From: Herbidospora yilanensis
Lineage (GTDB): Bacteria; Actinomycetota; Actinomycetes; Streptosporangiales; Streptosporangiaceae
Length of the DNA: 64,000 nucleotides
NCBI RefSeq assembly: GCF_001570565.1
Contig: NZ_BBXE01000013.1
Span: 1-64,000 of the forward strand
Reading direction: 5' to 3'
The notes beneath the pieces are model-generated. The model did no database searches and was not told the origin of the DNA. It saw nothing but the letters and a program-made list of their open reading frames with translations. Every line of letters begins with the position of its first letter. Positions within the stretch are counted from its first letter, which is position 1. The translations under genes were made by a program, and so were the position numbers. This document shows, in pieces, positions 12,745-54,846 of the stretch.

Positions 12745-13380
12745 GTGTTCTTCGGCATCACCGACATATGGACCTATGTCATCGGCGCGTTCCTGATCGT
12801 CCTCCTCCCCGGCCCGAACTCCCTGTTCGTGCTCTCCACCGCCGCCCAGCGCGGCGTCCGCGACGCCTACCGCGCCGCGGCCGGCGTGTTCATCGGCGAC
12901 TCGGTGCTCATGTTCGCCTCGGCGGCGGGCGCGGCCTCGCTGCTCATGTCCAACGAACTCGTCTTCACGATCGTGAAGTACGCGGGCGCCGCCTATCTGG
13001 CCTACATCGGGCTGACGATGATCTGGGGCGCCTGGCGCACCCGCACCGTCACCGGCGAGGTCGCGACGCCCGCGCTCTCCCCCGACCCGTTCCGGAAGGC
13101 GCTGATCATCAGCCTCCTGAACCCGAAGGCGATCCTGTTCTTCGTCTCGTTCTTCATCCAGTTCGTGGACCACACGTACGCCGCGCCGGCCCTGTCGTTC
13201 CTGATCCTGGGCGCGATCCTGCAGGTCTTCTCGGTGCTCTACCTGTCGGCGCTGATCTTCGGCGGGACGTTCCTGGCCGGGCAGTTCCGGCAGCGGAAGG
13301 TGCTGTCGGCGGGGCTGACGACCGGTGTGGGCGCGGTGTTCGTGGGCTTCGGGGCGAAGCTGGCGACCACGAGCCTCTAG
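12745..13380 (+). CDS. LysE/RhtB family exporter (LeuE-like)
   Basis: This 211-residue exporter has six helices. The hallmark early motif is IVLLPGPNSLFVLSTAAQRG (about 17-36), matching the LysE/RhtB GPG(P/N) signature, and a second family motif is NPKAILFFVSFFIQF near 131-145. It should export an amino acid or related metabolite; the sequence resembles leucine-efflux LeuE members, but specificity cannot be read from sequence. The start is GTG at 12745. Its TAG stop interlocks with the TAG of the convergent gene on CTAG. Confidence 0.88.
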   Translation: MFFGITDIWTYVIGAFLIVLLPGPNSLFVLSTAAQRGVRDAYRAAAGVFIGDSVLMFASAAGAASLLMSNELVFTIVKYAGAAYLAYIGLTMIWGAWRTRTVTGEVATPALSPDPFRKALIISLLNPKAILFFVSFFIQFVDHTYAAPALSFLILGAILQVFSVLYLSALIFGGTFLAGQFRQRKVLSAGLTTGVGAVFVGFGAKLATTSL

Positions 13381-13862
13381 ACCGGCTTGCCCGTCGCCTC
13401 CCAGACCGCCGTGACCTTCCCGCAGGAGGTGTCGCCGCCCTTCGCCGCCTCCAGGCGGGCGTCGAACTCGGTGACGAACCACGCCCCGGCCCCGGGGTCG
13501 AAGGCGGCCCGGGTCGGGGTGAAGGAGAACCGCCAGCAACCGGTGGCGCCGGGCACCCCGTTGGCCTCGCCGTCGACGATGGCGACCTTCTTCCGGCCGG
13601 ACCGGTCGTGCGACACGCAAAGGCCGCCGTCGCACGGCTCGACGGTGACCCGCTTCGCCGGCCGGCACTCGCTCAGGCCGTCGCACCGCGTGCCCGTCAG
13701 GTCGAACACGATCCTCTTCCGGACGAGGACGTTCCCCTTGGTCTCGTAGCCCTCGATCGTGTCGCGCAGCCCGGCCACCTTGGCGCGGGCGACCATCGTC
13801 TGGGCGACGACGAGGGCGGCCAGCACGCAGACGAGCACGACGAGCACGCGGGTGCGCGTCAT
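13377..13862 (-). CDS. Membrane-anchored extracytoplasmic protein of SrfABC-like operon
   Basis: The 161-residue product has one N-terminal hydrophobic helix (about 5-22) and then an exported-looking domain with six cysteines (CDGLSEC, CDGGLC, GCWRF, TSCGK) that could form disulfides. No lipobox or clear signal-peptidase site is obvious, so the helix is probably an anchor. It is the last gene of the five-gene operon headed by a dynamin-like GTPase. Its ATG overlaps the upstream TGA by four bases. I do not recognise a family; a sensor or docking role on the outer face is only a guess from topology. Confidence 0.7.
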   Translation of the reverse strand: MTRTRVLVVLVCVLAALVVAQTMVARAKVAGLRDTIEGYETKGNVLVRKRIVFDLTGTRCDGLSECRPAKRVTVEPCDGGLCVSHDRSGRKKVAIVDGEANGVPGATGCWRFSFTPTRAAFDPGAGAWFVTEFDARLEAAKGGDTSCGKVTAVWEATGKPV

Positions 13863-14401
13863 GCCAGCGACACCAGGACGAGCCCGGCCAACGCCAGGGC
13901 GACGATCGCGGCCACGACCGGCACCAGCCACACCGGCGGCAGGGGCCGCACCACGACCGGCGGGGGCGGCGGCGCGGCCGGCTCGATCGTGGTGGCCGTC
14001 GGGATGCGCGGGATGCGGAGCTCCCGCGTGACCTCGGCGGCGGGTTCGGCCCAGAAGGCGGTCCGGGGATCGAAGGTGACCCGGTCGTGGGTGGCGACCG
14101 GGATCCACCGCCCGTCTATCGAGATGCCGCGGTGGTGCCAGTGCAGCGCCCCGGTCCCCTCGGCCGCCAGCCGGTGGCAGCGGTCGGAGGCCGCCGCCGA
14201 GGTGAAGCAGAGCAGCACGAGTTCGCTCTCGGCGCTCACCTCGAACCCGATCCCGCCCGGCCAGCGGAAGCTGCGCGGCCGGGCCGGGCCGTCCATGGCC
14301 ACCCAGGCGCCGCGCAACTCGCCCGCGCCGAACTCCGCCGAGTGGCTCAGCGCCCGGACGTAGTCGTCGTCGGACGGCCAGGCGACCAGGTCAGCTCGCA
14401 T
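13859..14401 (-). CDS. C-tail-anchored hypothetical protein of SrfABC-like operon
   Basis: The 180-residue protein has a soluble N-terminal domain of about 135 residues, a proline-rich spacer (about 142-156) and a single C-terminal hydrophobic helix (about 156-178). This predicts a cytoplasmic domain tethered to the inner face of the membrane. The N-terminal part has repeated aromatic positions (SFRWPGGIGFEV, ALHWHHRGISIDG) but no motif I can assign. It overlaps the previous gene by 11 nt and the next one by four, so it belongs to the same transcript as the Hsp70-like ATPase and GTPase. Confidence 0.7.
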   Translation of the reverse strand: MRADLVAWPSDDDYVRALSHSAEFGAGELRGAWVAMDGPARPRSFRWPGGIGFEVSAESELVLLCFTSAAASDRCHRLAAEGTGALHWHHRGISIDGRWIPVATHDRVTFDPRTAFWAEPAAEVTRELRIPRIPTATTIEPAAPPPPPVVVRPLPPVWLVPVVAAIVALALAGLVLVSLA

Positions 14402-15419
14402 AGATGACCCGTCCCGGCGTCTCGATCCCGTGCACGCTCGACCACGCCCGCACGCACGCCAGCACCTGGCCGGGCCGTTCCGGATAGTGGATGGCGATGT
14501 CGTGGCGGGTCAGGTCGTCGGCCGAGCGGTAGCGGCCGGGCGGGAACTTCACCGTCCCGGCGCCCGAGTCGAGCGCCGCGTCGGACAGGGCGTCGTTGCA
14601 GGCCGCCCGCCACTCGCCCCACCAGGAGTCCTCCGGCGCGGGCGGCAGGTGCACCACCGAGCACAACGCCTCGTGCAGGCGGACCACCGACTCCAGCCAC
14701 GGGCCCGAGTGTCTCCGCTGGGAGGCGACCTCCTCCAGGCGGTTGTTCAGATGTCCGACGTAGCCGGTCCGGGCGGCCGGTTCGGCCAGGCCGCGCAGGC
14801 CGGAGAACTCCAGCGTCTGGAGGCAGTGGTGCAGCCCTGGATCGAGCTCGGCCAGGACCGGGATCATCGCCGCGAAGGTGGCCATCTCGGCCGGGACCGA
14901 GCCGGCGGTCTTCGGCGCGCCGCCGCCGGACACGGCCAGCCCCGGCGCGACCACGCGGCCGTCGACCTTCAGCGCCGGGATCAGGCGTTCGTCCTTGGGG
15001 CCGTGCAGGGTGACCGCCGCCCCCGGCTTGCCCGGCCTGGCCCCCGACCGGACGGCGACCTCCTCGGCGGCCCGGCGCACCAGGTCGGCCTCGCGCCGCG
15101 ACAGGCGCAGCGCGTTGAGGTGGACGGCGGTCCACAACGTTCCCTCGTCGTGGGAGGGCGCGGTCGACCCGGGCGCGATCCGCTCGGCCAGGCCGAGCAG
15201 GGACTCGCGCAGCGGACTCGCGGCGGTCACGGCCGCGACCGGCTGCTCCGGCGCCGGGGCGGCCAGCACGGCGTCGAGGTCGGCGGCCAGGTCCGCCGTC
15301 CCGGGGCCCGGCAGGCCGTCCAGCGCCGTGCGCAGCCCGGCCAGGAATCCCCGGGTCAGGGCGGCGGGCGCGGTCCCGGTCTGGGCCAGGACCGCGCGCA
15401 GGGTCTCCTCCAGCGCCAT
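14391..15419 (-). CDS. Hypothetical soluble protein of SrfABC-like operon (342 aa)
   Basis: This 342-residue protein starts at the ATG at 15419, which shares one base with the TGA of the Hsp70-like gene (TGATG). It is soluble, Ala/Leu rich and mostly helical. Recognisable landmarks are only the aromatic EDSWWGEWRAACNDAL stretch near 268-283 and a C-terminal block with YPERPG. No enzymatic motif was found. By position it could be the counterpart of SrfA in srfABC loci, which is also the least characterised member, but I saw no sequence evidence for that. A longer frame upstream is antisense-free only because it shadows the Hsp70-like gene and is not used. Confidence 0.7.
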   Translation of the reverse strand: MALEETLRAVLAQTGTAPAALTRGFLAGLRTALDGLPGPGTADLAADLDAVLAAPAPEQPVAAVTAASPLRESLLGLAERIAPGSTAPSHDEGTLWTAVHLNALRLSRREADLVRRAAEEVAVRSGARPGKPGAAVTLHGPKDERLIPALKVDGRVVAPGLAVSGGGAPKTAGSVPAEMATFAAMIPVLAELDPGLHHCLQTLEFSGLRGLAEPAARTGYVGHLNNRLEEVASQRRHSGPWLESVVRLHEALCSVVHLPPAPEDSWWGEWRAACNDALSDAALDSGAGTVKFPPGRYRSADDLTRHDIAIHYPERPGQVLACVRAWSSVHGIETPGRVIYAS

Positions 15420-18400
15420 CAGTGGCCGCCGTTGAACGGGTTGAGCTTCTCGTCGACGTCGGGGTCGCCCGGCGTCATCGCGACGCTGAACACCGACCCC
15501 GGGTCGGCGACCACGTCGGCCGGGGACCCGGCCTCCCGGAATCGCACATAGCCGGGCTCCACGGTCAGCCGCCCCTCGGAGTCGAGCACCGGCACCATGT
15601 CGGCGCCGAGCAGCCCCGCCCTGGGTGCCCGCACGGACTCGCCGATCTGGGTCAGGGCCTCGGGCCTCCCGGGCTCGGGGGTGTAGAAGGTCCAGAGCCC
15701 GTCGCCGGGCACGTCCTTGGGCAGCGGCCGGCCGATCAGACCGGCGGCGTGGCGGCCGTTGTCGGTGAGCAGGCGCTCGGTCAGCACCGTCCCGGCCGTG
15801 AAGATCGGCTGCGGGGCGGAGGCCAGGCCGCCGGCCGTGTACGGGTTGACCACGATGTCCCGCTGGAGCACGAAGCGGCCCGCCTCGTCCTTGGCCACCA
15901 GGCCGCGGGTCGCCGGGGCGGAGCCGAAGCGGGGGGCGTACACGGGACCGGACTGGTGGCAGAAGTGGGCGGTCACCAGCTCCCGCTCGTTCACCTCGAA
16001 CGTCACCATCACCTGCCGGTACCAGGCGGCCTGCTGTTCGGCGGGCACCCGTCCCTGGAGCAGGTCGTGCATGCTCAGGTGGCTCCACAGGCTGCGCTCC
16101 TCCTCGACCGCGAACGGCTGGCGGTAGATCGCCATGTTCTGCGGCACGGGGATCCAGTCGCCGTAGCGGCGGCGGCCCTCGATCTCGCCGTCGACCTGGA
16201 TGCGGTCGAACCGCTCCCCGACCTGGAAGACCGGGAAGAGCTGCCCGCCCGTGGCGTCGAAGACGAGGGTGTTGGGGAGCGCGTGGAACAGGTTGTCCAC
16301 GTCGATGTAGAGCTCCGTCAGGCCGCGCCGCACCCGCTGGGTCGCGTGGGAGGCGCTGGCGTAGCCCTTCTGCCTGACGTGTTCGGCCCAGCAGGCGCCG
16401 ATGGAGGTGCCGGTCTTGGCGAAGGCGGGGTCGTACACGACGTCGAGGGGGTTCCAGTTCACGTGGTCGCCGGCCTGCGCGAACGTCTCCAGGAGGACCC
16501 TGCGCACCTGCGGCAGCGCCGACGTGCCGCCGGAGATGATCACCTTGTCGAGGACGTCGGGCACACCCTTCTCGTCCCGGCCCAGCCGCCGTTTGACCAC
16601 GCTGAGGGCGATGGCGAAGGCGTCCCTGACCACCTCCTCGATGATCCGGTTGATCTCCTCCCGCTTGACGACCACCTCGGCGGGCTCGGTGATCTCACGG
16701 GCCCGGCCCTCCAGTTGGAGCAGCTCGGGCACCCGGCGCACCACGTAGTCGCCCTCGTGCGTCGACTGCTGGCGTTTGGCCAGGTCGGCCTGGCTCCACA
16801 GGCGCCGGAAGCGCTCCTCGGCGGCGTGCCGGTCACCGGCCGCGCTCGCCCAGCGTGTCGGCACCACCTTTTCGATCAGGTCGGCCCGGCGCTGTTCGGC
16901 GTCGGAGCCGGCGGTGGGGGCCAGCAGCGAGCCGGGGACGTAGACGCCGCCGGTCAGGTAGCCCGGGTACTCCTCGCGCACCAGCCGGGGCGAGCGGGTC
17001 AGCACCGCGTCGGCCAGCAGCGCCTTCAGGTGCTTGAAGACGCCCAGCGTGATGCGGTCGCCGCCGAGCTGGGCCCGGCCCGCCTTCGCCAGCACGGCGG
17101 GACGCAGCGCGTAGTAGCGGCCCTGGACCCGCTCGTCGCGGCCCGTCCCGTAGACGGTCTGGTCGAGCAGGGTGATGCCGAGCAGCGCGATGTCGGTGGT
17201 GCCGCCGCCGATGTCGACGACCAGGATGTTGCGGTGCCACTGCTTGTCGCCCACCCGCCGGGTGTGCGCCCGGAACGCCTCGATGCCGACCGCCTGGTCA
17301 CCGGCGAAGTCGCGCATCAGGTAGAACATCGCGGCGGCGGTCGCCTCGTCGTAGGCGGTCACGACCTGGCGCATGCCGATGCGGCGGGCCAGCCGTTCGA
17401 CGTCCTGGCGGGTGCGGGGCGGCGACACCGTCGGATAGGTCACCACGGCGTGGGTGATCGGCTTGGTCGACACCTCGTCGGGGTGGTCGTGGCAGTATTT
17501 GGCGACCTTCTCGGTCATCAGGCCGGCCCAGGCGGCGGCGATCACGTCGTCGGGCGTCACCGGGTGGCCGGCGGGCAGGCCCGGCAGCGACCGGGACGAG
17601 CCGAGGAACTGCTTGAGGCCGCGCTGCGACCGGACCTCCGGCGCCAGCGGCTCGGCCGACCCGCCGGAGCGGTGCCCGTCGGCCGCCATGCTGACGGTCA
17701 GCGGGTCGAGCCCGTGGACGGCGATCTCGCTGTCGATCGTCTCCTCCCCCGCGTGCAGCGGGATCCTGATCATCCGCTGCTCCCGGATCGGCGGCACGTC
17801 GAAGGCCGCGCGGTAGAGCCCCTGCAGCGCCTGGGACACGATCGGCTGCCGCACCTGGGCGGCCTGGCGCTCCATCGTCAGGAGCAGCCGGTAGAGCCCC
17901 GCGCCGCTGGTGGAGGTGTCGTTGTCGAGCACGGCCCTGGCGGCCTGGAGCGGGTCGGCGGTCCCCCCGGCGGTCGCCAGGGTGCTCCCGGTGGCGGCCA
18001 GGAAACGCTGCCAGCTCTGGCCGTCGAGCCCGTAGCCGGGATGCCCGTCGAAGCGCAGGGTCAGCTCCCGGCGCAGCACCTCCCGCTGCGAGGGCGGGAA
18101 GCCGATCAGGGCGTGCTGGCGGCGCTGGTCGAACAGGGTGATCGAGGTCGTGCTGGTGCCGTAGTCCAGGGCGATCCAGCCGCTGTTGACGTCGAGGTCG
18201 GGGCGGGTCTCGGGGGTGACGGTTACGCGGCTCTCTGCCATTCGGCGGTTCCCGCCCTCGTACTCGTAGGTGATGGTCCAGGTGAAGACGACCGGGTCGG
18301 CCGGCGCGTCCGAGGGCTCGGCCGACACCGGTCCGAGCAACCGCCACGCGCTGCCGCCCCGCACGCTCAGGCCGCCCGGCGGGACCTGCGGCGTCCAGCG

Positions 18401-18544
18401 GGTGGCGAGCGCCCCGGCGGGTTCGACGGTCACCGCCCTGATGACGGCGTCCCGTTCCGGCACGACGATCGGGAGGGGCAGCGGTCCGGGCACCCGGACG
18501 TCGGTGACGCGCGCGCCGTCGGGGCCGGCGAGGTAGAGCTCCAT
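15419..18544 (-). CDS. Giant Hsp70/actin-fold ATPase, SrfB-like
   Basis: The 1041-residue protein has an N-terminal beta-rich domain (about 1-118), an Hsp70/actin-type nucleotide-binding domain (about 122-700) and a unique C-terminal region (about 700-1041). Phosphate-1 motif: IALDYGTSTTSITLFD at 124-139. Connect-type segment: AYDEATAAAMFYL at 397-409. Phosphate-2 motif: LVVDIGGGTTDIALLG at 441-456. Adenosine motif: KVIISGGTSALPQV at 667-680. A DnaK-type peptide-binding domain is not evident. Size and pairing with a dynamin-like GTPase resemble SrfB of enterobacteria, whose biochemical role is not established. It follows the GTPase gene with no spacer (TAGATG) and precedes three unknown genes, so a multi-protein complex is likely. 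Chaperone activity is inference only. Confidence 0.8.
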   Translation of the reverse strand: MELYLAGPDGARVTDVRVPGPLPLPIVVPERDAVIRAVTVEPAGALATRWTPQVPPGGLSVRGGSAWRLLGPVSAEPSDAPADPVVFTWTITYEYEGGNRRMAESRVTVTPETRPDLDVNSGWIALDYGTSTTSITLFDQRRQHALIGFPPSQREVLRRELTLRFDGHPGYGLDGQSWQRFLAATGSTLATAGGTADPLQAARAVLDNDTSTSGAGLYRLLLTMERQAAQVRQPIVSQALQGLYRAAFDVPPIREQRMIRIPLHAGEETIDSEIAVHGLDPLTVSMAADGHRSGGSAEPLAPEVRSQRGLKQFLGSSRSLPGLPAGHPVTPDDVIAAAWAGLMTEKVAKYCHDHPDEVSTKPITHAVVTYPTVSPPRTRQDVERLARRIGMRQVVTAYDEATAAAMFYLMRDFAGDQAVGIEAFRAHTRRVGDKQWHRNILVVDIGGGTTDIALLGITLLDQTVYGTGRDERVQGRYYALRPAVLAKAGRAQLGGDRITLGVFKHLKALLADAVLTRSPRLVREEYPGYLTGGVYVPGSLLAPTAGSDAEQRRADLIEKVVPTRWASAAGDRHAAEERFRRLWSQADLAKRQQSTHEGDYVVRRVPELLQLEGRAREITEPAEVVVKREEINRIIEEVVRDAFAIALSVVKRRLGRDEKGVPDVLDKVIISGGTSALPQVRRVLLETFAQAGDHVNWNPLDVVYDPAFAKTGTSIGACWAEHVRQKGYASASHATQRVRRGLTELYIDVDNLFHALPNTLVFDATGGQLFPVFQVGERFDRIQVDGEIEGRRRYGDWIPVPQNMAIYRQPFAVEEERSLWSHLSMHDLLQGRVPAEQQAAWYRQVMVTFEVNERELVTAHFCHQSGPVYAPRFGSAPATRGLVAKDEAGRFVLQRDIVVNPYTAGGLASAPQPIFTAGTVLTERLLTDNGRHAAGLIGRPLPKDVPGDGLWTFYTPEPGRPEALTQIGESVRAPRAGLLGADMVPVLDSEGRLTVEPGYVRFREAGSPADVVADPGSVFSVAMTPGDPDVDEKLNPFNGGH

Positions 18545-20887
18545 CTACGCGCCCCGCTTCCAGTCGGCGAACCGGGCGAACCCGAGGTTGACGCCGCCGC
18601 TGGGGTAGGCGGCGCGGAGTTTGCGCAGCTCCTCCAGCAGCGGGGTGCCCTTGGCCTGCGCGGGGCGGCGCACGACGTCGGCGCGGATCCGCTCCAGGAC
18701 GTCCTCCAGGGTCTCCAGGCCCGATCTGATCTGGGCGTCGGCCAGCGGGCGCAGGGCGTCGAGCCAGCCGCGGACCACCATGTCGGCGGCGTCGACGACC
18801 TGCTGCCGGAGCCGGATCACGTGGACTGGGTGCAACTGGTGCACGAACCAGGCGTCTTCGGCGGGCCGGTCGTCGTGGGGGATGGACCAGGCGAACCGGT
18901 GGGGGCGGCGCATCGGGAAGGCGTGCTCGACGCCCCCGGTGTCGGGGCGGGGCAGGTCGGCGGCGGCGTCGGTCAGGATGCCGCGCCACTCGGCGGGGCG
19001 GATCAGCGCGGCCAGCGTCTCGCGTTCCTGGTCGGGCAGGTCGACGGCGGCGAGCCGGCGGCGCAGGTCGTCGGTCACGAGGGACTGGGCCTTGGCCAGC
19101 ACCGCCCGCTCCCAGCGGTCGAGCGCCAGGTTCCGGGAGCTCGCGTAGACCTCGTGGCAGACCGTGGTGAAGGGGCCGACGAACTCCTCGGTCGACTCGG
19201 GGCCGGCCCGCAACTCGGTGCCGGTCGCCGTGGACATGATCGCCCACCACTGGGGCCAGGCGAAGACGCGGGCGATGAGGTCGGCGCGGACCTCGTCCAT
19301 CAGGGAGGGGTTACCGCCGCCGAGCGTCTCGGCCAGCAGCGGCGGCAGGTCGGCCTTGAGGCTGCTCAGCACGGTCTTGACCTGGTTCACCAGGTTCTCC
19401 GCCTCCGCGCCGGCCGAGGCGAATACGGTCCGGGAGGCCTGGTCGAGCGCGGCCTCCAGGCCGCCTTCGGCCAGGTCGAGGGCGGCGCGTTCCTTCACGA
19501 CGCGGCTGTGGCGGGCCGTGAGGCCGTAGCCGGCCAGCCGGTCGGACAGCCGGTTCAGCACCAGCTCCTTGCCGCCGTCGCGGGCGGTCTCGGTCAGCAT
19601 GGTCCGCAGCCGGCTCGACTGCGGCAGCCCCGCGGCGACCGCCCCGGCGGCCTCGACGACCCTGACCGCCTCCCCGACCCGGTTGTCGAGCGACCCTGAG
19701 AGACCCATGTGGTCGAGGGCCGTCAGCCCCGAGTAGAAGAAGGGGTCGTCGTCGGGGTTGAGCCTCCCGGCGGTGTCGAGCAGCTTGCGCAGGGTCGGCA
19801 CCTGGTCGAGCACCTCGTCGTCGGACTGCGCCTGGCGCAGGGCCGCGGTCTCGAACCGCCTGATGTCCTGGACGTCGCTCAGGTTGCCCACCCCCACCAG
19901 CACCCGCCCGCGCCGGTCGACGGGATAGACCTCGCGGAGCAGCGAGGTGAGCTCGTCGGAGGCCATGCCGTCGGGGTTGCCGCCCTTGAGCAGGGCGATC
20001 ACGGTGTCCATGTCGGGCAGCAGCGTCCTGGTGAGGGTCAGGTCGCGCTCGCCGGAGATGTCGTTGAGGAAGCCGGGGAAGTCGTAGACGACCATGCGGT
20101 CCTTGGAGACCTCGTGGTTCCAGGACGCGTCGCCGAGCAGCCGGTCGAGGTCGAGCACCTCGGGGGCGACCTCCACGGTCACCGCGACGTGGTCGACGAT
20201 CCAGAAGGGGTCGGGCTCGGAGACCGGCCGCCTCTCGGAGATGAGCAGCAGGTCCTTCGCCTCGGCCTCGGAGATCCCCGGCCGCGCGCCCAGCCGGCTC
20301 CCGAACTCGCGGACGGCCAGCGCGATGGCCACGAGCTGGGCCGACAGGCGGCGGACCTGGTTGGGGGCCTGGGCGGCGTGCGCCTGGTGCCAGCTCAGCA
20401 GCGCCCGCCCGTCGCCGTTCCGGGCGGCGGCCTCCCAGACGGCCTGCTCGAACCCGGCGGCGGCCGGGCCGGACAGGGCGCGGCCGGCGGCGTGCAGCTC
20501 CTGGCCGATCGACTCGCGGCGCTGGGCGACGGCGGTCTCCGTGAGGTAGCTCGCGTGCCGGCCGGTGATGACCGTGCGGGCGCCGGAGGGTCCCTGGCGC
20601 ACCCAGTAGGCGGTGACGTTGCCCGTCGTGGGCTGGTCGCCGATGAGCAGGCCCTCCAGTCCGAGCAGGGAGGCGATGAACATCGTCTTGCCGGCGCTGA
20701 ACTCGCCGAGCACGCCGAGCTGGTAGGGGCGCCGGGTGGCGTCGAGCAGCCGGCCCGCCTGGTCGCGGGCGCGGGCGACGGCCGGGCCGAGCTCGTCGGG
20801 CAGATCGGGGTTCTCCAGCAGGCGCCGGATCCCGGCGGCGTACTCCCCAGCCGTGCGGATGTCCTGTCTCATGTGCTCGACCGTCAC
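18545..20887 (-). CDS. Dynamin-like GTPase, SrfC-like
   Basis: The 780-residue protein has a dynamin-type G domain: G1 GEFSAGKT at 61-68, a G2-like TTGN at 87-90, G3 DFPG at 269-272 (VVYDFPGF), and a weak G4 candidate NLSD at 335-338 in place of (T/N)KxD. A roughly 120-residue insertion separates G2 and G3. The C-terminal 400 residues are mostly helical with coiled-coil potential, as expected for a stalk, and no transmembrane helix is present. The GTG at 20887 is supported by AGGAGG six bases upstream; an ATG at 20872 is the alternative. It heads a five-gene operon. SrfC-type virulence proteins and bacterial dynamins are the nearest families I can name; membrane remodelling or partner loading is inference. 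Confidence 0.82.
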   Translation of the reverse strand: MTVEHMRQDIRTAGEYAAGIRRLLENPDLPDELGPAVARARDQAGRLLDATRRPYQLGVLGEFSAGKTMFIASLLGLEGLLIGDQPTTGNVTAYWVRQGPSGARTVITGRHASYLTETAVAQRRESIGQELHAAGRALSGPAAAGFEQAVWEAAARNGDGRALLSWHQAHAAQAPNQVRRLSAQLVAIALAVREFGSRLGARPGISEAEAKDLLLISERRPVSEPDPFWIVDHVAVTVEVAPEVLDLDRLLGDASWNHEVSKDRMVVYDFPGFLNDISGERDLTLTRTLLPDMDTVIALLKGGNPDGMASDELTSLLREVYPVDRRGRVLVGVGNLSDVQDIRRFETAALRQAQSDDEVLDQVPTLRKLLDTAGRLNPDDDPFFYSGLTALDHMGLSGSLDNRVGEAVRVVEAAGAVAAGLPQSSRLRTMLTETARDGGKELVLNRLSDRLAGYGLTARHSRVVKERAALDLAEGGLEAALDQASRTVFASAGAEAENLVNQVKTVLSSLKADLPPLLAETLGGGNPSLMDEVRADLIARVFAWPQWWAIMSTATGTELRAGPESTEEFVGPFTTVCHEVYASSRNLALDRWERAVLAKAQSLVTDDLRRRLAAVDLPDQERETLAALIRPAEWRGILTDAAADLPRPDTGGVEHAFPMRRPHRFAWSIPHDDRPAEDAWFVHQLHPVHVIRLRQQVVDAADMVVRGWLDALRPLADAQIRSGLETLEDVLERIRADVVRRPAQAKGTPLLEELRKLRAAYPSGGVNLGFARFADWKRGA

Positions 20888-21203
20888 GTAGTCCCTCCTG
20901 GAACGCTCTTCACGTTCGGACTGTAGCTACGACAACCCCAACGGAACAGACGCTTCCACCACATCAGGGACAAACCTGGAATGGCCCTAATTGAGTCAGA
21001 TAAAGAAGTTGAGTGTGGACGGTTATCCGGAGGGTTAGATCCCTCTAACTCGACAGACGTCCCCTACGGGTCACCCCCGACCACCCCTAAGGGTCGGGTA
21101 CTGTAACGAATCGGCCACGGCCTCCCAAACCGGTTTTCATACTCCAGCCAAGGGGTAGGCGCGAAAGCTTTAGCGTCGGTGCTCCGACGCCTGAAGGAGC
21201 AGC
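20888..21203. other. Divergent intergenic region, SrfABC-like operon and VC0807-like gene
   Basis: This 316-nt region has no gene and carries the promoters of two divergent units. It contains GTTAGA-TCCC-TCTAAC (21034-21049), a perfect 6-bp inverted repeat with 4-nt spacer that could be an operator, and a 7-bp hairpin GCGTCGG-TGCT-CCGACGC (21173-21190) directly before the AAGGAG of the rightward gene. No confident -35/-10 pair was identified. Confidence 0.55.
21034..21049. promoter_or_regulatory. Inverted repeat in divergent promoter region
   Basis: GTTAGA at 21034-21039 and TCTAAC at 21044-21049 are perfect complements across TCCC. It lies between the divergent GTPase operon and the VC0807-like gene and is a candidate binding site for an unidentified regulator. 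Confidence 0.4.
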
Positions 21204-52635: not shown

Positions 52636-53085
52636 ATGTTGTTCCCAGCATCGGTGGCGCTCCTGATCGCGAGCCAGTGGGGGTGGCCTCTGGTGGGCGA
52701 ACCCCGGCCCAGCCGCCTGTTCACTCCCCCGCCGGAACGCTGGCTGTCCGGGCACCGCGGGGTCGACCTGCCCGCGACGGCGGGGCAGGAGGTGCTGGCG
52801 GCGGGAGAGGGGGTGGTCACGGTGGCGCGGAAGGTGGCGGGGCGCGGGGTGGTGACGGTGGCACATGCCAACGGGCTGCGGACGACGTACCTGCCGGTCG
52901 ACGCGGCGGTGACGGAGGGGCAGCCCGTGCGGACGGGAGAGGTATTGGGGACGGTGGGCGGGGCTGACGGGCACTGTCCGGCCACGTGCCTGCATTGGGG
53001 GTTGCTGAGTGGGGGTCTGTATCTGGACCCGCTGCTTCTGATGGGCCTGGGACAGGTCAGGCTGCTTCCCACCGGAGAGGACTGA
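52636..53085 (+). CDS. M23-family (LytM-like) peptidase
   Basis: The 149-residue protein starts with a hydrophobic stretch (MLFPASVALLIASQWGW) that may be a signal peptide or anchor, then an M23 core (about 32-140). HRGVDLP (about 46-52) supplies the first His and Asp. In the HxH place it reads CLHWG (about 117-121), so the first His is Cys and a disulfide with the preceding HCPATC cysteine is possible. Cell-wall peptidoglycan cleavage is the family role, but the changed metal site leaves activity in doubt. The start at 52636 is chosen over 52543 because the hydrophobic N-terminus begins there. It is the expected neighbour upstream of rpsB in this housekeeping order. Confidence 0.75.
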   Translation: MLFPASVALLIASQWGWPLVGEPRPSRLFTPPPERWLSGHRGVDLPATAGQEVLAAGEGVVTVARKVAGRGVVTVAHANGLRTTYLPVDAAVTEGQPVRTGEVLGTVGGADGHCPATCLHWGLLSGGLYLDPLLLMGLGQVRLLPTGED

Positions 53086-53400
53086 CGAGAGGCGCCCGCC
53101 CGCTGTGACCCCCGTTCACCCTGGAACGGTGGAGACGGCTCGTATGGCGAGTCGGCGAAGGAGCCGGTCCCGCGCAACATCGCCGCCTGCCATTCACGGT
53201 TTCATGACCGCCATTCCGTGATGCGTCGGTCAACCAGCACGAGCCTCCTCTCTCGCATCGGCCGCCATCACAACAGCCGATCGGCCGGAATGCGGGCATG
53301 ACGACATGGGACGCGTCGCCGTCAGGGTGTGGGAATCGTGTGGCTGCTGGATCCACCGGAGTCGGCAATCGCGGCTCTGCGTCTCGGCAGATTCCCCCGG
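53086..53400. other. Intergenic region between M23 and xerC genes
   Basis: The 315-nt gap between the convergent M23-type and recombinase genes has no supported gene. It contains a 6-bp hairpin (53112-53129, CCGTTC/GAACGG) suited to terminating the rightward transcript, and ATCGGC/GCCGAT arms at about 53258-53283. Longer frames across it lack start-site and codon-bias support. Confidence 0.5.
53112..53129 (+). terminator. Hairpin downstream of M23-type gene
   Basis: CCGTTC (53112-53117) pairs with GAACGG (53124-53129) across a 6-nt loop, 26 nt after the stop codon. The stem is short and no U-tract follows, so this is a weak terminator call. Confidence 0.4.
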
Positions 53401-54846
53401 TCAAGCGCGGGGGTGGGCCTGTTGATAGGCGGCTCTGAGACGCTCGATCGAGACGTGCGTGTAGATCTGGGTGGTGCCCAGTGACGCGTGGCCGAGTAGT
53501 TCCTGCACGCTGCGGAGATCGGCGCCGCCTTCCAGAAGATGGGTGGCCGCCGTGTGGCGCAGGCCATGTGGCCCCATGTCGGGCACTCCCGCCTCACCCA
53601 GCCGGGCGTGAACGACCCGTCGCACGGCGGTCTGGTCGATACGACCACCCCTGACCCCGAGGAACAGCGCCGCGCCGGAGCGCCCGCAGACGAGGACGGG
53701 CCGCCCGCGCCCGCACCAGGCGTCCACGGCGTCGAGCGCCGGCATTCCCAGTGGCACGACCCGCTCCCGGCCGCCTTTGCCCAGGACCCGGATGGTGCGT
53801 CGCTGCCGGTCGACGTCATCGACGTCGAGCCCGCAGAGTTCGCTGACCCGGATCCCGGTGGCGTAGAGCACCTCCAGCAGAGCCTGGTCCCGCAGTTCCT
53901 TCGCCACGACGAGGGGGTCGTTCTCGGCGGGCTCCGATCCCGTGCCGCGCCCTTGTCCCGGATCGCCATCCGAGATCGGCTCCCGGTCACGAGAAACGCC
54001 GTGGGAGGCGGTTGATCTCCACTTGGAGGGCGGGCTTCCACCATCCGAAGCGCGTGACACCGGCCGACCGCCGAGATCGCCTCCGGCAGAGGCGATGCCC
54101 CCATATCCAGCAGCCGGCTCGGCCACTTCAAGACCTGGAGCCGGGCGGTCAGTGGTAACACGGCGTTCGGAGTGCTCAGGCTGATCATCGCGGCGCCCGG
54201 ACCGCCCACGTAGATCATCGCGATGCTCGGACTGCCCGGGTAGATCATCAAAGCGTCCGGACCGCCCCGGCAGATCACCGCAGCACCCGGACTGCTCGGA
54301 GCAAGAACGGGCCATGTCGAGTTCTGAATCGCTGAGGCGAGGCCGGCCTGTTCGGGCAGTGCCGGTTTCGGAAGCCGAGCCGCTCAGGTCGGCCCCTTCG
54401 GACTCGCCCCGCAGGCCGCCACCCGATCGCTCGCCACCACGTGAAGCCCTTCCTCCGTCGGGTCGCCTGAGGTCCAGCATCCGTACCGCTTCCGCCTGGT
54501 CGAGGACCTTCGGGAGGGTCCTTCTGGCCCGAGCCGTGCCGAGGAGGAGGCCCGGGTCGGCCATCAGCCACCCCGCCCGGTGGCAGAACGCCGTGAAGGC
54601 TCGGGCGCACGCCGTGCGACGGGCCAGGGTCGCGCGGGACTTGCCGGTGTCGTGCTGTTCGCCCAGCCAGTCCCGCAGCACCCCCACGTCGATCAGTTCG
54701 ACCCGGTCGACGCCCACGTCGATGAGATGTTCCGCCAAGGAGGACATGTCGCCCATGTAGGCCCGGACCGTGTTGGCCGCCAGGCCGCGTTCGACCCGGA
54801 GGTGGCGTTCGAAGGCCTGAATCGCGTCCTCAAGATCTCCCGACAT
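53401..54846 (-). CDS. xerC: XerC-like tyrosine recombinase with a long repeat-containing insertion
   Basis: The 481-residue recombinase has a SAM-like core-binding domain (about 1-125) and a catalytic domain (about 308-481). The active-site set is intact: Arg333 (GIRVSEL), Lys357 (GKGGRE), His427 and Arg430 (HGLRHT), His453 (LGHASLG), Tyr462 (IYTHV). Usual XerC is about 300 residues; here about 180 extra residues (about 128-309) lie between the two domains. The insert is low complexity, rich in Gly, Ser, Asp and Arg, and residues 183-228 are imperfect ten-residue repeats encoded by a 30-bp tandem array. The insertion sits at the domain linker, which could explain tolerance. It resolves chromosome dimers with a partner in most bacteria. 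It follows dprA after six nt. Confidence 0.88.
   Translation of the reverse strand: MSGDLEDAIQAFERHLRVERGLAANTVRAYMGDMSSLAEHLIDVGVDRVELIDVGVLRDWLGEQHDTGKSRATLARRTACARAFTAFCHRAGWLMADPGLLLGTARARRTLPKVLDQAEAVRMLDLRRPDGGRASRGGERSGGGLRGESEGADLSGSASETGTARTGRPRLSDSELDMARSCSEQSGCCGDLPGRSGRFDDLPGQSEHRDDLRGRSGRRDDQPEHSERRVTTDRPAPGLEVAEPAAGYGGIASAGGDLGGRPVSRASDGGSPPSKWRSTASHGVSRDREPISDGDPGQGRGTGSEPAENDPLVVAKELRDQALLEVLYATGIRVSELCGLDVDDVDRQRRTIRVLGKGGRERVVPLGMPALDAVDAWCGRGRPVLVCGRSGAALFLGVRGGRIDQTAVRRVVHARLGEAGVPDMGPHGLRHTAATHLLEGGADLRSVQELLGHASLGTTQIYTHVSIERLRAAYQQAHPRA
54163..54300 (-). repeat. 30-bp tandem repeat array inside xerC
   Basis: Four complete 30-bp units (54163-54192, 54193-54222, 54223-54252, 54253-54282) and a partial fifth share CGGAC(C/T)GC(C/T)C near the start and GATCA(T/C)C near the end. 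The period is a multiple of three, so the xerC frame is kept as ten-residue units of the form xRxDDxxGxS. It is the only clear minisatellite in the window. Confidence 0.8.

What the first reader, a model, noticed from the sequence alone, without database searches (positions are those of the whole stretch)
13377..20887. SrfABC-like operon: dynamin-like GTPase, giant Hsp70-fold ATPase and three unknown partners in an actinomycete
Seen: five genes overlap or touch (TAGATG, TGATG, 11 nt, ATGA). The first encodes a dynamin-type GTPase (GEFSAGKT, DFPG, weak G4), the second a 1041-residue protein with all three Hsp70/actin nucleotide motifs and no visible DnaK peptide-binding domain. Known: srfB and srfC of enterobacteria pair an Hsp70-like and a GTPase-like protein of similar size, with no settled biochemistry. 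Inference: a conserved two-NTPase machine, here with membrane-anchored parts. It could be a stress, defence or trafficking system; nothing in the sequence tells which.
Basis: partly seen in the sequence, partly recalled or inferred. Interest (0 to 1): 0.75.

Follow-up and report, generated by a model that had tools for sequence, protein, structure and literature searches.

The report
Dynamin-GTPase, Hsp70-like and GrpE-like operon
A soil actinomycete carries a compact gene set pairing a dynamin-type membrane GTPase with its own Hsp70-like motor and a protein that resembles the GrpE helper of Hsp70, which suggests a dedicated chaperone-driven membrane machine of unknown purpose.

Summary
In detail: five tightly packed minus-strand genes (13377-20887; Herbidospora, Streptosporangiaceae). 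The conserved unit is a three-gene core: dynamin-family GTPase, giant Hsp70-like ATPase, third protein. In 40 loci read, the GTPase is always directly upstream of the ATPase; the third gene is recognised in 36. (1) The ATPase does not clearly lack a DnaK-type peptide-binding part: profile alignment runs through the linker into a diverged SBD-beta; the helical lid is missing. (2) The third protein is probably GrpE-like: 9 of the top 11 PDB fold matches are GrpE chains (E>=0.09, low TM), and its C-terminal half matches GrpE at P 0.001, above 48 unrelated families, 20 shuffles and a reversal (HH probability only 20%). SrfB kinship is supported but partial, SrfC kinship weak, SrfA untested. In relatives the core carries DUF4407 membrane proteins, vWA plus Tubulin_2, or vWA plus PP2C: modules also described for DO-GTPase/HSP70/GrpE systems (Kaur 2020) and FtsZl1 systems (Makarova and Koonin 2010), here with a dynamin-type GTPase. 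Most likely: an Hsp70/GrpE-like pair dedicated to a dynamin-like GTPase at the membrane. Physiological role unknown; no clear defence signal.

The parts
18545..20887 (-). core gene 1: dynamin-family large GTPase, 780 aa (P0001); P-loop GEFSAGKT, DFPG
   Evidence: Dynamin_N 28.2 bits, cut-off 27; Dynamin_N in 19 of 19 aligned members at E<=0.1; profile hits Slr0869 dynamin 7zw6/9em9 at about 1e-8 and BDLP 2j68 at 2.3e-7, but also Der/EngA GTPases at 5e-8
15419..18544 (-). core gene 2: giant Hsp70-like, SrfB-like ATPase, 1041 aa (P0002): N-terminal beta region about 1-110, Hsp70 nucleotide-binding domain about 120-730, linker and diverged SBD-beta-like region about 740-860, further beta-rich C-terminus, no helical lid
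14391..15419 (-). core gene 3: 342-aa protein (P0003), predicted GrpE-like nucleotide-exchange factor (helices, then C-terminal beta strands about 288-341)
   Evidence: for; against: and the low TM-scores
13859..14401 (-). accessory gene 4: 180-aa protein with Pro-rich stretch and C-terminal TM (tail anchor) (P0004)
   Evidence: homologue in L031 at the same place, 41.5% identity, E 1.4e-27
13377..13862 (-). accessory gene 5: 161-aa protein with N-terminal TM and a Cys-rich, presumably extracytoplasmic domain (P0005)
   Evidence: homologue in L031 by clustering
13377..21029 (.). segment absent as a block from two Herbidospora genomes (in G433 13377-21029; in G436 13377-20849, where the ribosome-binding region and first codons of gene 1 still match)

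Best explanation
A dedicated chaperone-driven dynamin machine at the cytoplasmic membrane. Shown: the three core genes travel together; gene 1 is a dynamin-family GTPase with intact P-loop and DFPG; gene 2 is an Hsp70-type ATPase with the catalytic set (DxGT, Lys311, Glu400, DIGGGTTD) and a linker plus diverged SBD-beta-like region but no lid. Suggested: gene 3 is a GrpE-like exchange factor for gene 2. Inferred: gene 2, recycled by gene 3, takes gene 1 (its fixed genomic neighbour) as dedicated client and loads, remodels or strips its oligomers on the membrane, as Hsc70 does with clathrin coats. Genes 4 and 5 (tail-anchored and signal-anchored) would tether the machine and pass on an envelope signal; in relatives other membrane or cytoskeletal modules (DUF4407, vWA plus Tubulin_2, vWA plus PP2C) take that place. 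The trigger and the benefit to the cell are not known.
Confidence: 0.45

Rival explanations
1. Biological-conflict (anti-phage or abortive infection) system analogous to the DO-GTPase/HSP70/GrpE/tubulin systems of Kaur et al. 2020: the GTPase and chaperone set a threshold and assemble a membrane-damaging effector on infection.
For: Same module vocabulary in relatives (vWA 11, Tubulin_2 7, DO-GTPase2 4, PP2C 3 of 69 neighbour proteins; themes in PMC7159879, passages); patchy distribution (22 of 341 family genomes hit, 21 with core loci; 18 of 354 in a second family; besides G000 only one of the 396 genomes sampled across the phylum); block presence/absence in one genus.
Against: PADLOC on 69 of the 127 listed neighbours shows no clear defence system: its strongest hits (STK_OB in 2; PycTIR/TIR/PycC in 2; UvrD-type helicase in L031) probably reflect PfkB kinases, CRP-type regulators and a helicase seen with Pfam, though I did not trace each; no P0002 match in the plasmid or phage collections; in G436 the absence looks like loss with a scar, not recent gain; no variable effector in the window's operon; PADLOC on P0001-P0005 gives only weak matches (LeoA 0.0012 for P0001).
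Confidence: 0.3
2. Gene 2 works as an actin-like filament or scaffold rather than as a chaperone, and gene 3 is a filament-binding partner: a two-filament cytoskeletal system with the dynamin.
For: MreB and FtsA models also touch the phosphate-2 region; tubulin-like genes join the locus in 8 of 40 cases; the authors suggest that SrfB may form a homomeric complex.
Against: The similarity is far stronger to Hsp70 and extends past the NBD; the partner resembles an Hsp70 exchange factor.
Confidence: 0.1
3. It is a true SrfABC orthologue and acts as a secreted or injected tripartite cytotoxin, as claimed for Xenorhabdus.
For: SrfB model over cut-off; three proteins of similar sizes (464/1006/893 aa from the ORF lengths in PMC6950479, against 342/1041/780 here).
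Against: SrfC model hit by only 3 of 19; reversed gene order; no hydrophobic N-terminus in core proteins 1-3 (hydropathy only; no signal-peptide program run); an ATP/GTP-driven machine with TM partners in a soil actinomycete fits a toxin poorly; in Salmonella the operon is reported to affect swarming (PMC4219756, passages).
Confidence: 0.05

Closest known systems
SrfABC (Pfam SrfB PF07520; SrfC taken, from recall, as Virul_Fac PF10139), Gammaproteobacteria
   Same: Three-gene set with an Hsp70-like protein of about 1000 aa, a large second protein and a smaller third; SrfB model passes its cut-off for P0002; the three Xenorhabdus proteins form a complex (PMC6950479)
   Different: SrfB match covers about 70 of 992 positions; SrfC match weak or absent; gene order GTPase-ATPase-third instead of A-B-C; SrfA not compared
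DO-GTPase GAP1-N2 systems (Kaur, Burroughs, Iyer, Aravind 2020, PMC7159879)
   Same: GTPase-centred systems with HSP70 plus GrpE, tubulin plus vWA, or kinase, PP2C and vWA themes, mainly in actinobacteria and firmicutes
   Different: Here the core GTPase is dynamin-type, the Hsp70 is giant and SrfB-like, the GrpE-like protein is highly diverged, and GAP1 was not detected; a DO-GTPase is only an optional neighbour (L103, L036, below cut-off in L033; a fourth of 69 not traced)
FtsZl1/vWA/GTPase membrane-remodelling systems (Makarova and Koonin 2010, PMC2875224)
   Same: About 1000-aa Tubulin_2 proteins next to vWA genes in 8 of 40 core loci (that Tubulin_2 equals FtsZl1 is inferred from size and layout); predicted membrane remodelling
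   Different: No Tubulin_2 match in the window's genome; Hsp70, DnaK, GrpE and dynamin do not occur in that paper's text
DnaK-GrpE
   Same: NBD, catalytic residues, linker and SBD-beta-like region in P0002; GrpE-like C-terminus in P0003
   Different: 1041 aa with extra beta regions and insertions; no helical lid; no J-protein in the operon; P0003 family is below Pfam GrpE thresholds
Bacterial dynamins (BDLP 2j68, Slr0869/SynDLP 7zw6, LeoA 4aur)
   Same: Dynamin_N domain; profile hits from 1e-8 to 2e-5
   Different: None recalled with a dedicated Hsp70 and exchange factor

Membership tests
SrfABC | SrfB (PF07520) over Pfam cut-off | tested here: met
   P0002 28.1 vs 27.1 bits, but over about 70 of 992 positions; 18 of 19 members at E<=0.01; 0 of 14 control genomes, and among 21 genomes only the 5 Herbidospora with the operon, not G604 although it has a core locus
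SrfABC | SrfC (PF10139) match of the GTPase | tested here: not met
   none for P0001 at E<=1; 3 of 19 members at E<=0.1, best 0.0023
SrfABC | SrfA homologue as third gene | not tested
   no SrfA model among NCBIfam hits of the gene-3 family; no SrfA sequence was fetched
SrfABC | gene order A-B-C | tested here: not met
   order here is GTPase, ATPase, third
DO-GTPase GAP1 systems | DO-GTPase and GAP1 genes | tested here: not met
   P0001-P0005 hit neither in Pfam (flanking window genes not scanned); 2 of 19 GTPase members touch DO-GTPase2 weakly; GAP1 not among the 25 of 39 families shown for 69 neighbours in relatives
FtsZl1 (Tubulin_2) system | Tubulin_2 gene present | tested here: not met
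   no match in the own genome; present in 8 of 40 related loci
Hsp70 superfamily | NBD with catalytic residues | tested here: met
Hsp70 (DnaK type) | SBD-beta after linker | tested here: inconclusive
   P 0.009 and above 48 other families, carried by the full alignment, but weak alone
Hsp70 (DnaK type) | helical lid after SBD-beta | tested here: not met
   secondary structure of the model after residue 860 is almost all strand
GrpE | Pfam PF01025 over threshold | tested here: not met
   0 of 21 at E<=0.1
GrpE | C-terminal beta-wing related to GrpE | tested here: inconclusive
GrpE | dimer with long paired helix, exchange activity | not testable with these tools
   needs biochemistry
Dynamin superfamily | Dynamin_N GTPase domain | tested here: met
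   28.2 vs 27 bits; 19 of 19 members at E<=0.1
Dynamin superfamily | membrane binding and self-assembly | not testable with these tools
   needs biochemistry

The most novel reading that the evidence does not exclude
Bacteria have a dedicated Hsp70/exchange-factor pair that drives the assembly cycle of a dynamin on membranes, a functional parallel of clathrin uncoating, and the enterobacterial SrfABC proteins are a branch of the same machine with SrfA as a cryptic GrpE, so that SrfABC is an intracellular chaperone-dynamin device rather than a toxin.
Probability: 0.25. Interest if true: 0.85.

Novelty: new variant of a known kind. Interest (0 to 1): 0.6.

Why it matters
A GrpE-like third partner, a diverged SBD-beta and a dynamin-type GTPase turn the set into a concrete hypothesis that purified proteins can test. 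It would be the first case known to me (recalled) of a bacterial dynamin with its own Hsp70 system; none of the papers listed by the ten searches made reports one in title or abstract start, but these were neither exhaustive nor outside one open-access library. It also links two separately predicted families of membrane/conflict systems (DO-GTPase and FtsZl1) through shared modules.

Tried and rejected

Mechanical failures: script errors, corrected and rerun. hhalign warned that one option was unknown and ignored it.
Full report
What is there. The window lies in a 7.85-Mb actinomycete genome (G000:C13). The nearest named records are four Herbidospora species, 95-96% identical in P0002; Herbidospora is in Streptosporangiaceae. 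My codon-usage gene caller recovers all five.

Gene 1 is a dynamin-family GTPase. Dynamin_N passes its cut-off, all 19 aligned members hit it at E<=0.1, and the family profile finds the bacterial dynamins Slr0869 and BDLP in the PDB at 1e-8 to 2e-7, though Der/EngA GTPases score as well. P-loop and DFPG are intact. In a 40-row alignment (two rows unrelated GTPases) the G4 region is poorly kept; Asp338 is present in 33 rows and gapped in 7.

Genes 4 and 5 have one TM segment each, at the C- and N-terminus. They occur in the window and the four named Herbidospora loci; L031, from another genus, has both in the same places (gene 5 by clustering; gene 4 by tblastn, 41.5% identity). BLAST clustering showed them in no other locus; only L031 and L032 were checked by tblastn for gene 4, L032 without a match.

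How conserved is it. P0002 finds 22 of 341 family genomes, of which 21 carry the core and one (L047) does not; 18 of 354 genomes of a second actinobacterial family, all with the ATPase; and, besides G000 itself, one true case among 396 genomes drawn across the phylum. The 40 loci read lie in 39 genomes. The GTPase is directly upstream on the same strand in 40 of 40. Gene 3 is recognised downstream in 36 of 40 (L109, whose ATPase is broken, is counted); L097, L110, L111 and L112 lack a recognisable one, L110 and L111 having an unassigned 270-aa gene in its place. The reverse search with P0001 hit 24 of 338 genomes: 16 matches lie in core loci, 8 are short (under 140 residues) and elsewhere. Two of seven Herbidospora genomes lack the operon: flanking DNA is 88-90% identical and the segment from 13377 to 20849 (G436) or 21029 (G433) is missing. 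In G436 the ribosome-binding region and first codons of gene 1 still match (46 of 55 bases), which points to loss rather than recent gain.

What it travels with. DUF4407 membrane proteins adjoin the GTPase in 8 loci. Eight loci add a vWA protein and an about 1000-aa Tubulin_2 (FtsZ-like) protein (L109 by clustering only). Three add a small vWA protein and a PP2C phosphatase (L046, L110, L111), and L112 shares the vWA gene. DO-GTPase2 proteins follow the core in L103 and L036 (over cut-off) and L033 (below); the census counts a fourth that I did not trace. In the six tubulin-bearing loci of the second family whose GTPase gene is readable (L100, L101, L102, L104, L105, L108), the dynamin-like protein has no P-loop and no D[FLV]PG motif, while in L044, the tubulin-bearing locus of the window's own family, both are intact. 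These six may reflect one event. L110 also has a degenerate P-loop.

How it probably works. The fixed core is a dynamin-type GTPase, an Hsp70-type motor and a probable exchange factor for that motor. The economical reading is that the motor acts on the GTPase, its constant neighbour, loading or stripping it on the membrane, as Hsc70 strips clathrin (established knowledge; the abstract of PMC4436892 in the listing says so). Tail-anchored and signal-anchored proteins (here), DUF4407, or tubulin/vWA modules supply the platform. The client, the direction of action and the trigger are inferences. Support from outside: SrfA, SrfB and SrfC of Xenorhabdus co-precipitate (PMC6950479: abstract, introduction, section 2.5 and passages read).

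Comparison with what is known. SrfB kinship has support that ordinary DnaKs do not give but rests on a short conserved stretch; SrfC kinship is weak and SrfA was not compared. Kaur et al. 2020 (PMC7159879: passages) describe DO-GTPase systems with HSP70 and GrpE, with tubulin and vWA, or with kinase, PP2C and vWA; the words dynamin and SrfB do not occur in its text. Makarova and Koonin 2010 (PMC2875224: parts 1-2 of 5 read plus a term search) predict membrane remodelling by FtsZl1, vWA and a GTPase. The window's operon shares their modules through its relatives but fails the defining features of both (no DO-GTPase or GAP1 in the operon, no Tubulin_2 match in its genome). I therefore call it a new variant of a known kind.

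Limits. Families and genera of most loci are unnamed in the tool. Gene starts come from my own caller. Homologues were sought in Actinomycetota genomes, plasmids, phages and one scan each of GTDB contigs and IMG/VR; wider bacterial distribution was not surveyed. I saw no interaction, expression or phenotype data for this operon.

Noticed in passing
L100, L101, L102, L104, L105, L108: Dynamin-like core protein without P-loop or D[FLV]PG motif in the readable tubulin-bearing loci of one family: a pseudo-GTPase beside a tubulin-like protein.
   Followed up: partly
L109: Core genes of this tubulin-bearing locus are broken into pieces (Hsp70-like gene in two frames, short GTPase); left as found.
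   Followed up: no
L097: The ATPase gene is followed by no recognisable third gene; a convergent 1182-aa gene is called on the other strand and ends 3 bases away.
   Followed up: no
G000 contigs C22, C45, C52: Three GrpE matches over Pfam's cut-off in the window's own genome (117, 111 and 43 bits), so this lineage keeps several GrpEs.
   Followed up: no
L048 and L095: A second, unrelated GTPase (641 and 588 aa, P-loop GEFRQGKS) lies within the 20-kb stretches around the core.
   Followed up: no
window 52654-53907: The two ORFs called here have the weakest coding signal of the window (scores 10 and 10).
   Followed up: no
L099:12337-12807: Small gene after the core with a sub-threshold match to flagellar FlhE (E 0.00065); srfABC of Salmonella is described as clustered with flagellar genes, so perhaps worth a look, more likely chance.
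   Followed up: no
L113-L124: Twelve IMG/VR loci encode short relatives of the actin-fold core, all over residues 324-455 of P0002.
   Followed up: no
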